This document shows positions 26,973-42,377 of a stretch of 64,000 bases of DNA, in pieces (the first letter of the stretch is position 1; each line of letters starts with the position of its first letter). The stretch is taken from NCBI GenBank assembly GCA_963921795.1, contig OY997642.1, positions 56,936,591 to 57,000,590 of the forward strand, read 5' to 3'. Origin of the DNA: Nannobrachium achirus. Taxonomy: Eukaryota; Chordata; Actinopteri; Myctophiformes; Myctophidae. The notes beneath the pieces were generated by a model, which was not told the DNA's origin, did no database searches, and saw only the letters and a program-made list of their open reading frames with translations. The translations under genes were made by a program, and so were the position numbers.

Positions 26973-27432
26973 TGTGGTAGTAATATTTATAGTGTAACAA
27001 ATAAGTGTACTGTATGTAGTCTACAAGAAAATCTCACTAGGCTACTACATTTAGATGTACCTGCTGCTGTCAATCTAACAGCTGACAACCATGGACTGTG
27101 ACCTCCACTGCTCCTCTGTGTCAGCATAAAACCTGTACTAAGTGATACTATACATGGTCATTGCAACTTAACCAGTCAGCCTTATTATAAACTGTATGGT
27201 ACTTAGTATAGATGCTTAGTTTCTATCTCCATCTAGGGAGAGCATCTTGGTGTATAAGAAGTGTCCCATATGACACTTGAGGAGGGTCTTCTGCCCAACA
27301 GGGCAAAGCTCTGGCCAGCAGGCCAGAGCTCTCTATGCTGTGTATGCTGTATGCTGTTTCTCTGATGCTGATGAATCTTCTTCAATAAATGGTTGACTTC
27401 ACCCTGACTGGATATTAATATTTTTCTATCAC
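26973..27432 (+). mobile_element. Putative solo LTR-like unit at the left end of the insertion
   Basis: 460 bp starting TGTGGTAG and ending CTATCACA (TG...CA). It holds a TATAAG at about 27,254, a perfect hairpin (AGCTCTGGCC / GGCCAGAGCT) near 27,308-27,331 and an AATAAA at about 27,383, the order expected of an LTR. It occurs only on the left side. Flanks show no clear target duplication (GAGC on the left, GTAG on the right), so it may instead be an unmatched end of the large element. Confidence 0.5.
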
Positions 27433-27523
27433 AGTAGAATAGAGGGCAGTGTTTGGCGGGAGGGCAGTTGGTGACGTCACAGTAGGTGTACGTGCGTGTG
27501 CGCGTGCGTGTGTGCGTGCGGGC

Positions 27524-27625
27524 GTGTGTGTGTGTGTGTGTGTGTGTGTGTGTGTGTGTGTGTGTGTGTGTGTGTGTGTGTGTGTGTGTGTGTGTGTGTG
27601 TGTGTGTGTGTGTGTGTGTGTGTGT
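27524..27625. repeat. (GT)n near the left outer end
   Basis: About 100 bp of GT just inside the terminal 88 bp. The mirror tract is interrupted by a CC, which shows the two arms are separate sequences. Confidence 0.95.
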
Positions 27626-30600
27626 TTCAAAAGTGAATAAAGGGCCCATGTTGGGGTGTATTGTTTGGTGTTCATTCTTAAAGACAGTGGGTGTTTTATT
27701 GTTTTTCTAAAGGATGGGTTTAGCGTGACTGTAATTAGTGAATGGACATGCTGAGGGCAGCCCCGGGTTGTGCTCCTTGTGGGATGGGGAGATCAATGGC
27801 TTTTTTTTTTTTCCTGAGGGCAGTTTACAGATCAGCCTAGGGATCTATTCGTTGTAGGATGGGGAGATGATGATGAGGCCAGCATGTGGGTGTCATGACA
27901 CAGTGAAAGTAGGTCTGACCATAGTCTCATACTGTGATAATCTGTGCGTGGTATTGGGATGGGAGTTGAGATGGTCATGGATTGTGTTACTGTAGAGTAG
28001 GTTCAATGCAGGTAGAACAATGGGAACCAAGGCATTGAATAGATCTTACTATCAGGGGGGTCGTGACCATAGGCAAAATCGATATTGGGGGGGTCATATA
28101 CATTTAAAAAACAAAAGATGAAGGCAGGATGATGATGTCAGCATGTGGGGGTCATGGCCATGTGAGACCCGGGTCGGTCATGGCCTCATACCGTGATAAT
28201 CTGCACCAGCATTTGTCCATGCTAAATACACTATGCCGTTCTATGAAAGAATCAGGGGTTGATGTAAAACAATGTTAGCCCTACTGTTAAGCTCAGTGAC
28301 CACAACTCAGGGTGTGTAGAAACAGGGCATGCACTTTTACTGGACAATATATATATTTTTTCCAGTATACACACATGGATATAGTTATAGAAACCTATTA
28401 CCTAGCCAAAAGTGAGAAATTCCATACATGAAAATAAAAGAATAAATAAGTAATGAAAAACAGCCGATCTACCTGGTCACAGAACGAGGCGACATGGAGA
28501 GAGAGAGTAAGATGTGACAGGGGGTAGACGCTGACAGATCTACAGTACAATTATGGCTTTTACTGAGGCTATGTTGATCGTTTTGAGGGGGCAAACATAT
28601 AATTTATCGATTGGGTCTCGAGATAAATAAATACCATTTAAATAAAAAACGTTTGGTAGCAATTAGTATACAGTTTTAAAAGGCTATAGTGCAAATGATA
28701 TTAACAGACCAGTAAATATTTAGTTATGATTTGTTTTACTATGTCATGGTGTCTGACATGAATTTCATAGTCAAACCTTAACATAGCTACAATGGTTATC
28801 ACTAACAATACTCATTAGTTGAGTTTGTGCTCCTACAGTACATAAAATCACAGTCTATCAAAATCTGTAACTTATGTGACAATAAAGATGCATATGATTC
28901 TATAAACATATGTCATTACTACCCATGTAAGTGAATAATACATTTGTAAAAATTGGTATAGGCCTAAGTCATTCAAGGATGTATTTGAAAATGTTTGGGT
29001 GTAAAACACTAGCTAGTTTTGACTACACACACAAATCATTTATTCTTCCTCGCCAAGATGTACGTTGTTCACATTAAAATTGATGTATACTGCTATGCAT
29101 TGGGGATACATCCTATACTGCATAGTCTAAATGTACAGATTTCAGATTTTTTATCTTTGGTTAATCAGGACACCAGAGCTAAATGGTAAATCTTATCCAT
29201 ATTGCATGGGGCCTAGAGTGTGGTTATCTACAAACCTTAGCTATAAGGTGACAGACCTGATACGTTAGGTGGCTATGAGAAAACTATTTTGATCTTTTTG
29301 TGAACAAATCTCAAACAGCTTAGATATGAGGACTGATTGTCTGTGTATTCATGTAATGTGTAATGATGCTTATTTCAGATGGAATTGCAAACCCATCATA
29401 CAGGTCTTTTTCTGAAATTATGTGTCAGATGTACTCATGGAACACTAAGTTGGACAGGGGTAGTAGGGGGTATAGTTATATATGATAGGATGAATCACTA
29501 ACAAAGATTTGTGTATTTGTTGTAAGTTGCTGGGGGCAGCGAGATCACATATTATTTTGTGACAAACAATGAATCTGAGTACATGCAAAAGCGGTATCCA
29601 TATGAATTTCATCAAATGTCCCATACATCCCCAATATTCTACCCATCATACACATTTGATACGGTACATTTTCAGTATAGTGTATGTTTAAGATGACTAT
29701 TTAGTGTGTTTTAAAACAATTATTCATTTCACTTGTAGATTAGCCCACAATATTCTGAAATGTGGGTTATTATAGTCTTTGAATCAACACATACGGGCCC
29801 CCCAAGCTCCTCAAGTCCTCATTAGTTTGCTGATCAACCAAACTTTATCACAGGAGACATAATGTGCTATAGTTTTGAACATTACAACTGACATAGATAT
29901 GAGGTAGGATTCGCTATTCAAAGCTATCTGTCTATTTTCATCTCACTAGTGTTTCTCCCCATACAATTTAAACAAAACATTGGCCCTCATACACTTCAAC
30001 ATAACTAACCAACCCGCACACCATCAACAAAACATAAAACTTTGCAGCATAACAGAAAAAATATTACAAAAATAACAACCCTAAGAATTTCAATCAGCAC
30101 TAAAACGCACAAAACATAAAACCTTTGCCTCATAACAGAAATCATCAGCATCGTCACTGCACATTGGGTGTAGCACACAAAACATAACACACAAAACATT
30201 AAAAACATAACTCTGGCATTCACGTGAAGACAAAATACACAATATGTTCTAATAATAAAGTGTTCAACAGACTTTTGCGCAACAACCTTTTAATATCAAC
30301 TGACTGTGTAAATAACTGAACGTTTTTTTTGTTGTTTTTTTGCATAGGTGATGGGAAAGTATGGTTTTTCAATGTATAGTTTGGATATTTGTTTTTGTCA
30401 TTTACTGTTACTGTTAATGATAGGATCATGGTTTCCCCACTACAAACTGTTTCCCAGTTTGTTTGCTACAAACTGTTTCCTACAAACTGTACACAGTATA
30501 TCAATCATAAAGTGTAGAGGACCAAGTATACAACACAAGTATGCAACATCTACTGGCCTGCATAATACCTACAGTAATCAACTACTGTATATTTAGCACA

Positions 30601-42100: not shown

Positions 42101-42188
42101 CCTTTAGAAAAACAATAAAACACCCACTGTCTTTAAGAATGAACACCAAACAATACACCCCAACATGGGCCCTTTATTCACTTTTGAA

Positions 42189-42288
42189 ACACACACACAC
42201 ACACACACACACACACACACACACACACACACACACCACACACACACACACACACACACACACACACACACACACACACACACACACA
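42189..42288. repeat. (AC)n near the right outer end
   Basis: Mirror of the left (GT)n, with a CC interruption at 42,236-42,237. Confidence 0.95.
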
Positions 42289-42377
42289 CGCCCGCACGCA
42301 CACACGCACGCGCACACGCACGTACACCTACTGTGACGTCACCAACTGCCCTCCCGCCAAACACTGCCCTCTATTCT

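What the first reader, a model, noticed from the sequence alone, without database searches (positions are those of the whole stretch)
26973..42377. 15.4 kb insertion built as a near-perfect 6.75 kb inverted palindrome, with its empty site in the same window
A repeat copy 2 breaks after 26,972 and resumes at 42,378. The paralogous copy at 47,719-49,244 is continuous across the same point, with only GTAAA between the flanks. The offsets (22,005 before, 6,605 after) give a net gain of exactly 15,400 bp. The insert's arms differ at only a handful of sites that I can see. It carries its own genes and tRNAs but no recognisable mobilisation gene, so it does not fit a named transposon class.
Basis: partly seen in the sequence, partly recalled or inferred. 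Interest (0 to 1): 0.9.

Follow-up and report, generated by a model that had tools for sequence, protein, structure and literature searches.

The report
Palindromic satellite of a Maverick element
A 15-kb stretch of DNA built as a near-perfect mirror image belongs to a family of jumping elements that share their ends with a virus-like Maverick element in the same genome, show no sign of its integration gene, and in many copies carry genes resembling cell-death and immune-signalling regulators instead.

Summary
The palindrome and its empty site are real, but the 15,400-bp gain is composite: a 461-bp solo LTR (26973-27433) beside a palindrome (27433-42377; arms differ at 5 places; spacer 1,441 bp). 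It is not a one-off. A terminal motif gives 52 ends genome-wide (control 0), forming 23 inverted pairs. Two pairs are apparently complete Mavericks (PolB, integrase, protease, ATPase); in the other 21, window included, no Maverick-type integrase was found. Perfect 6-bp target duplications flank 11 of 12 other integrase-less copies checked and both Mavericks; the window copy has none. Eleven copies measure 14.9 +/- 0.5 kb; ten unread pairs span 10.3-22.8 kb. Aligned arms are 3.7-7.6 kb in 10 of 12 fetched loci (published TIRs: 46-1,447 bp), with at most 0.22% substitutions within 7 of these 10 copies, against 2.7-39% between copies, two chimeras apart. Cargo in sister copies: 4xCARD protein (34 of 36 near-full-length genes stop-free), BIR-like protein, tRNA genes, relatives of a helper accessory gene. 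Arms extend the helper's right end (7 of 9 tested), never its left. Best reading: a helper-dependent palindromic Maverick satellite; the window copy is decayed. Replication and packaging by the helper are inferred, not shown.

The parts
26973..27432 (+). solo LTR of a short LTR retrotransposon (461 bp with the A at 27433, which is also the first base of the palindrome); separate from the palindrome
   Evidence: 40 near-full-length matches of 97-100% (window's own included), many in pairs ~1.67 kb apart; 4-bp target duplications at 3 of 4 loci checked
27433..34187 (+). left arm of the palindrome (27433-27435 have no partner in the trimmed right arm)
   Evidence: 5 differences to the right arm
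34188..35628 (.). spacer between the arms
35629..42377 (-). right arm; last 3 bp of the canonical end missing
27433..27756 (+). terminal repeat shared with the Mavericks (left copy); the mirror copy lies at the end of the right arm
   Evidence: 80-96% identity to both ends of L033/L034 and L035/L036
30673..30744 (+). tRNA-Trp(CCA) gene
   Evidence: Rfam tRNA 64 bits; tRNA-Trp also called in 7 of 12 other fetched loci, one piece (L011) not scanned
39071..39142 (-). tRNA-Trp(CCA) gene, mirror copy
31587..32015 (+). 5' part of ORF1 (relatives P0001, P0002; intact ~296-aa relatives in sister copies)
31997..32235 (+). short SINE-like insert (or 5'-truncated LINE) with UnaL2-type tail (32163-32217) interrupting ORF1; absent from 31 of 31 other genomic ORF1 copies listed
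   Evidence: (55.4 bits, cut-off 55); limits taken from the gap in the matches
32236..32557 (+). rest of ORF1, in pieces in shifting frames
37258..38228 (-). mirror copy of ORF1 with the same insert and frame breaks
33555..33650 (+). relic of the start of ORF2, the 4xCARD gene (residues 1-32 of the L032 frame used as query)
36166..36261 (-). mirror copy of the ORF2 relic
34181..34246 (-). inverted fragment of the last CARD of ORF2, across the inner edge of the left arm
34876..35157 (+). open frame of 94 aa in the spacer, no Pfam match
48978..48982 (+). empty site (GTAAA) in the paralogous repeat copy

Best explanation
27433-42377 is a decayed member of a multi-copy family of non-autonomous, palindromic Maverick (Polinton, adintovirus-like) elements. 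Shown: the family has the ends and 6-bp target duplications of Mavericks and a similar size; apparently complete Mavericks with the same ends and open core genes exist in the same genome; no Maverick-type integrase was found in the palindromic members, which carry intact accessory genes; most arms tested extend the helper's right end; arms within a copy are mostly near-identical while copies differ. Inferred: the helper's integrase inserts them and its protein-primed polymerase copies them from the terminal repeats. One helper end, duplicated to both sides, suffices as origin and integration end. During replication a displaced strand can fold back through its arms and one arm serves as template for the other, so the arms are made identical in each cycle; this would also explain the same small insert in both arms of the window copy. 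Most speculative: palindrome formation keeps a genome with few genes near capsid size, so the element may travel as a helper-dependent satellite in Maverick particles. At the window locus the element most simply sits at the end of a solo LTR, followed by a small deletion (about 19 bp) that removed its last 3 bp, the right-hand target duplications and 5 bp of the repeat; this accounts for 15,400 bp exactly but is one reconstruction.
For: TSDs: perfect 6 bp in 11 of 12 integrase-less copies with both ends read and in 2 of 2 Mavericks. Ends: 52 motif hits, control 0, 23 inverted pairs (paired by hand). Helper: rve 1.6e-11, chromodomain 7.9e-10, adenain 1.5e-4, A32-like ATPase 1.5e-4 (just under its cut-off), PolB 4.3e-42 in an open 1,335-aa frame; three loci with 99-100% identical stop-free integrase. 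None of the 29 integrase hits of 45% identity or more lies in the other 21 pairs or in two further subfamily-2 copies. Arms: 7 of 9 continue along the helper's right end to satellite position 450-810, weakly (63-70%) in the outer part, and 0 of 9 along its left end beyond its own TIR. Homogenised arms: 0.00-0.22% substitutions in 7 of 10 fetched long-armed copies and 2 substitutions in the window, against 2.7-39% between copies outside two chimeras. The small insert is in both window arms and in 0 of 31 other ORF1 copies listed. Shared accessory gene: hhalign probability 97, E 4.9e-11. Sizes 14.2-16.0 kb in 11 subfamily-1 copies. Adenovirus precedent: a 15-kb helper-dependent vector is packaged as direct and inverted dimers (PMC4189039, passages).
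Against: The window copy itself has no TSD and a trimmed right end. Copy C4 has no TSD. Two of 12 fetched loci (C6a, C22) have a truncated arm and C3 runs into N on one side. Three of 10 long-armed copies have arms 1.3-5.2% apart (C13, C10b, C4). Sizes are not all near 15 kb: C19b is 12.9 kb and ten unread motif pairs span 10.3-22.8 kb. No replication, mobilisation or packaging was observed. Arm identity could also come from gene conversion in place. PolB and capsid genes were not searched genome-wide. The helper's end motif AGTAGA is not the commonest (AGT)2 of the literature, though subfamily 2 has that one.
Confidence: 0.82

Rival explanations
1. The arms are kept alike by gene conversion in the chromosome, as in sex-chromosome palindromes, and not by replication through a fold-back intermediate.
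For: Near-identical arms are what both models predict; no extrachromosomal form was observed.
Against: C10b has a perfect 6-bp TSD and arms 4.9% apart, and its right arm is only 0.1-0.3% from those of C10a: it was most likely chimeric when it integrated and has not been homogenised since.
Confidence: 0.15
2. Plain non-autonomous transposon: mobilised in trans by the Maverick integrase and polymerase inside the nucleus, never packaged; palindromes arise as a by-product of TIR replication.
For: The sequence evidence fits; no particle evidence exists. Ten unread pairs range from 10.3 to 22.8 kb.
Against: Eleven subfamily-1 copies cluster at 14.9 +/- 0.5 kb, and C2, C3 and C19b are almost entirely two arms, as if doubled to size; stop-free cargo in dozens of copies suggests selection on expression.
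Confidence: 0.4
3. Assembly or library artefact (fold-back reads).
For: Palindromes are a known artefact of long-read libraries (recalled).
Against: Arms end at the same motif in many copies, with 6-bp TSDs outside, and have unequal centres and private differences; the palindrome does not extend into the flanks.
Confidence: 0.02
4. Chromosomal inverted duplication at this site, unrelated to mobile DNA.
For: The insert lies in a tandem array.
Against: Same ends, genes and mirror layout at many unlinked loci.
Confidence: 0.01

Closest known systems
Vertebrate Mavericks / Polintons (adintoviruses)
   Same: AGTAG//CTACT ends, 6-bp target duplications, similar total size, terminal repeat shared with apparently complete elements of the genome, an accessory gene family in common
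   Different: No Maverick-type integrase found; no PolB or capsid frame among those listed for five fetched pieces or the window; inverted arms of 3.7-7.6 kb against published TIRs of 46-1,447 bp (PMC8097293, section 7)
Helper-dependent adenovirus vectors, and symmetric adenovirus recombinants (Ad12 SYREC; the latter recalled, one search found no text)
   Same: Genome without replication genes, ends of the helper, inverted dimers near packaging size
   Different: Natural, integrated, multi-copy, with its own conserved genes; packaging not shown
Virophages and other satellite viruses (recalled)
   Same: Dependence on a helper, here inferred
   Different: No own capsid, polymerase or integrase found
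Foldback (long-TIR) transposons (recalled)
   Same: Long inverted arms
   Different: Ends, TSD length and helper are those of Mavericks

Membership tests
Maverick/Polinton | 6-bp target site duplication | tested here: met
   11 of 12 integrase-less copies with both ends read; not met in C4 nor in the window copy itself
Maverick/Polinton | terminal motif (AGT)2//(ACT)2 or similar | tested here: met
   AGTAGA/AGTAGG in subfamily 1, AGTAGT in subfamily 2; the window's right end has lost 3 bp; motif list from PMC8097293 section 7
Maverick/Polinton | terminal inverted repeats of 46-1,447 bp | tested here: not met
   aligned arms 3.7-7.6 kb in 10 of 12 fetched loci and 6.75 kb in the window
Maverick/Polinton | core genes PolB, integrase, capsid, protease, ATPase | tested here: not met
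   Integrase (45% identity or more) in 2 of 23 pairs only; the other core genes were seen in L033-L036 and not searched genome-wide. Hence filed as non-autonomous, not as a Maverick proper
Maverick/Polinton | size 16,862 +/- 1,678 bp, range 12,723-24,620 | tested here: met
   11 subfamily-1 copies 14.2-16.0 kb, C13 14.4 and C19b 12.9 kb, all inside the published range, several below one SD; three unread pairs (10.3, 11.6, 12.3 kb) lie below the range
Teratorn (piggyBac-herpesvirus) | ~180 kb, piggyBac-like transposon, herpesvirus genes (last part recalled) | tested here: not met
   size, ends and TSD length differ; size and piggyBac part from the abstract start shown
LTR retrotransposon | LTRs at both ends of the insert | tested here: not met
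   one LTR at the left only
Satellite virus | packaging in a helper's particles | not testable with these tools
   no virion data

The most novel reading that the evidence does not exclude
A vertebrate genome hosts a two-part, virus-like system: a complete Maverick and a palindromic satellite that is replicated, integrated and perhaps packaged by it. The satellite, not the helper, carries the cell-death and immune-signalling cargo (4xCARD, BIR-like), and its arms are reset to identity in each cycle, giving every insertion a built-in clock like that of LTRs.
Probability: 0.4. Interest if true: 0.92.

Novelty: new variant of a known kind. Interest (0 to 1): 0.78.

Why it matters
It would add a helper-dependent layer to vertebrate Mavericks, long suspected of being viruses, and separate helper from cargo: of the 45 strongest CARD-gene matches, none lies within 1.3 Mb of a Maverick-type integrase. 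The family makes testable how protein-primed elements form palindromes, whether capsid size shapes endogenous DNA, and whether such elements move host-like CARD and BIR genes between genomes. It also warns that near-identical inverted arms need not mean a young duplication or an assembly error.

Tried and rejected
Assembly artefact, local inverted duplication, LTR element, foldback transposon and Teratorn were weighed and rejected (see rivals and membership). Herpesvirus-type inverted repeats were considered early and dropped when the Maverick genes were found. The LTR as part of the element was dropped. Dead ends: viral contigs gave nothing for the end motif or the ORF1 relative; phages nothing; PDB by sequence nothing for ORF1 (E up to 10) or ORF2 (E up to 0.1); Pfam nothing for ORF1. 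A second fold of ORF1 with 5 sequences was worse (pLDDT 38) than the first (46), so the Pur-alpha resemblance (Foldseek E 2e-3) is weak and is left out of the summary. Arm divergence was not turned into years. Subfamily 2 was never counted by its end motif. Literature: searches (open-access PMC only; judged by titles and abstract starts, three papers looked into) listed no palindromic or non-autonomous Maverick satellite; this is a statement about those searches.
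Full report
1. The observation. The arms 27436-34187 and 35629-42377 are 6,752 and 6,749 bp long and differ at five places: two substitutions and three single-base indels. The spacer is 1,441 bp. The host sequence on both sides belongs to a tandem array of ~1.5-kb repeats. The left flank (25714-26972) matches 47717-48977 at 99.7%, the right flank (42378-44500) matches 48983-51105 at 99.9%, and the empty copy has only GTAAA in between. With the insert left out, the two repeat stretches are 99.0% alike over 4,580 columns. The simplest order is duplication first, insertion later.

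2. Two things, not one. A genome search placed the window at C5:56936591-57000590 of a 1.66-Gb assembly. Three of four loci checked show 4-bp target duplications (GAAG, GTAC, GGTT); the fourth, a solo copy at C16, does not (fragments printed, read by eye). This is a solo LTR. The palindrome begins with AGTAG at 27433 and ends three bases short of its canonical end. One reconstruction that gives exactly 15,400 bp: solo LTR with 4-bp duplication, palindrome inserted one base before the end of the LTR with 6-bp duplication TATCAC, then a 19-bp deletion at the right junction. The order is inferred.

3. A family. The gene stretch of the left arm has matches at 27 further loci, 31 ORF1 copies besides the window's two (counted by hand, a capped list). 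I fetched 12 of these 27 loci. Ten have long inverted arms; C6a and C22 are truncated on one side, and C3 runs into N on one side. A 25-base piece of the terminal repeat, with up to 3 mismatches allowed, gave 52 hits and none for the reversed control. I paired them by hand: 23 inverted pairs and 6 singles. With both ends read, 11 of 12 integrase-less copies have a perfect 6-bp duplication: TATATC, CATATG, CCTGCC, TATATC, CATCTA, GACCAC, CCCCCT, AAAATA, CCTATA (one end base of the element changed), AATGTG, ACTATC. In three of these (C12a, C112, C6b) only the ends were fetched, so their arms were not read. C4 has no duplication, and the window copy has none. Ten further motif pairs (10.3-22.8 kb) were not read at all, so it is not known whether they are palindromic.

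4. The helper. Two of the 23 pairs (C7:4514086-4530539, TSD CATATG; C12:5327168-5343636, TSD AACGTA) are apparently complete Mavericks of 16.45 kb, 99.3% alike over 8.76 kb of the left piece and 97.1% over 7.5 kb of the right piece. Open frames of the C7 copy match rve integrase and chromodomain, adenain, and an A32-like ATPase (just under its cut-off); a 447-aa frame has only a weak double-jelly-roll hit (E 0.031), and several frames have no Pfam match. A 1,335-aa frame matches viral-type PolB (E 4.3e-42). Genome-wide the integrase finds three near-identical stop-free copies (C7, C12, and C3:13033591, which lies beside a single motif end) and 23 more divergent loci of 45-74% identity, 18 of them without a stop (counted by hand). 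None lies inside the other 21 motif pairs or the two subfamily-2 copies C19b and C13.

5. Anatomy of the satellites. Copies such as C10b have arms of about 4.1 kb and a unique centre with ORF1 (about 296 aa), ORF2 (560 aa, four CARD stretches, Pfam E 4e-14) and paralogous frames ORF3-5, ORF5 being broken in C10b. An accessory frame of the helper is related to ORF3-5 (hhalign probability 97, E 4.9e-11, 25% identity; tblastn E 1e-11 to 4e-9). C2, C3 and C19b are almost entirely two arms; in C2 and C3 ORF1 and ORF2 are doubled and ORF3-5 were not found beyond short weak matches. Subfamily 2 (C19b, C13) has a BIR-like frame in its arms (Pfam E 4.8e-4, slightly below the curated cut-off). tRNA genes are called in 9 of 12 fetched loci (piece L011 was not scanned) and in neither Maverick. 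The window copy keeps only relics of ORF2 and a broken ORF1.

6. Selection. The CARD gene has 36 near-full-length matches (464 residues or more), 34 without a stop (counted by hand; C2, C3 and one C12 locus contribute two each). 13 of the 23 motif pairs contain a CARD-gene match and none contains both it and an integrase. The nearest CARD and integrase loci are 1.38 Mb apart (for the 45 strongest of the 95 CARD matches and 29 integrase hits). Many of the CARD matches lie in loci that I did not read, so their carrier is unknown. Pairwise dN/dS is 0.26-0.41 for ORF1 against the subfamily-2 copies and 0.52-0.66 for ORF2 against L032. These are simple pairwise counts; some very close pairs give values near or above 1.

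7. Where the arms come from. The helper's own two ends resemble each other over about 345-395 bp. Of nine satellite arms tested, seven continue along the helper's right end to satellite position 450-810, and none continues along the left end; C4 and C6a stop at the TIR. Beyond about 550 bp the similarity is weak (63-70%, partly off the diagonal). Both satellite ends thus look like copies of one helper end.

8. Arm identity. Substitutions between the arms are 0.00-0.22% in 7 of 10 fetched long-armed copies (C10a, C19a, C8, C2, C3, C5b, C19b), 1.3% in C13, 4.7% in C10b and 5.2% in C4; gaps come on top. Arms of different copies differ by 2.7-39% apart from C10b and C4 (11 loci of subfamily 1 including the window; C19b and C13 not in that set). 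Those two look like chimeras: C10b's right arm is 0.1-0.3% from C10a, C4's right arm 1.4% from C8. C10b has a perfect TSD, so its mixture probably preceded integration; C4 has none, as expected of a chromosomal recombinant. In the window copy the same small insert sits in ORF1 of both arms, and in none of the 31 other ORF1 copies listed. Either replication through a fold-back intermediate or later conversion copied it to the other arm.

9. Comparison with the literature. Intact vertebrate Mavericks have (AGT)2//(ACT)2 or similar ends, 6-bp TSDs, TIRs of 46-1,447 bp and sizes of 16,862 +/- 1,678 bp (12,723-24,620), with accessory regions beside the core genes (PMC8097293, section 7 read, passages otherwise). 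Its authors list constrained size among the indications that Mavericks are viruses. Most mammal-associated adintoviruses are said to appear to encode anti-apoptotic homologues and/or candidate oncogenes (PMC11071296, passages). Small helper-dependent adenovirus genomes are packaged as direct and inverted dimers (PMC4189039, passages). Symmetric adenovirus recombinants are recalled (one search found no text). My searches listed no report of palindromic Maverick satellites (titles and abstract starts).

10. Verdict. Ends, insertion mark and a helper with the same ends are shown; replication and mobilisation by the helper follow from the family's biology; packaging is a hypothesis. The window copy is a decayed member: broken gene, lost CARD gene, trimmed end. 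As a single locus it is a fossil; as a family it is a new variant of a known kind and of high interest.

Noticed in passing
window 26973-27433: Solo LTR of a short (about 2.1 kb) LTR retrotransposon with 461-bp LTRs and, at 3 of 4 loci checked, 4-bp target duplications; listed copies are 97-100% identical, so it looks recently active although the internal part is only about 1.2 kb.
   Followed up: partly
window 4119-6508: Frames resembling a DIRS-type retroelement: a tyrosine-recombinase-like frame (Phage_integrase E 0.0018, below cut-off); the type name is recalled.
   Followed up: no
window 22000-64000: Tandem array of about 1.5-kb repeats with a higher-order duplication offset by 6.6 kb and some copies inverted.
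   Followed up: partly
window 34876-35157: Spacer frame with acidic residues and a repeated IDLTV motif, which recalls SUMO-interacting motifs (recalled); no Pfam match.
   Followed up: no
G000: 23 further Maverick-type integrase loci, 45-74% identical to the helper, 18 without a stop: several Maverick lineages coexist.
   Followed up: no
Two target sequences recur at unlinked loci (TATATC at C10a and C8; CATATG at C10b and the C7 Maverick), perhaps a target preference.
   Followed up: no
L013, L015-L018, L023, L024, L027: Further tRNA-like genes (called Glu-TTC or SeC-TCA) in the arms of satellites besides tRNA-Trp.
   Followed up: no
G000:C24:37763580-37767487 and similar loci: Distant CARD-gene relatives (about 39-62% identity) in repeated blocks at several loci; carrier and origin unknown.
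   Followed up: no
G000 pairs C4:63185421, C8:47447178, C9:58737772, C21:19535752: Motif pairs of 10.3-22.8 kb that were not read; the first three have neither CARD nor integrase matches.
   Followed up: no
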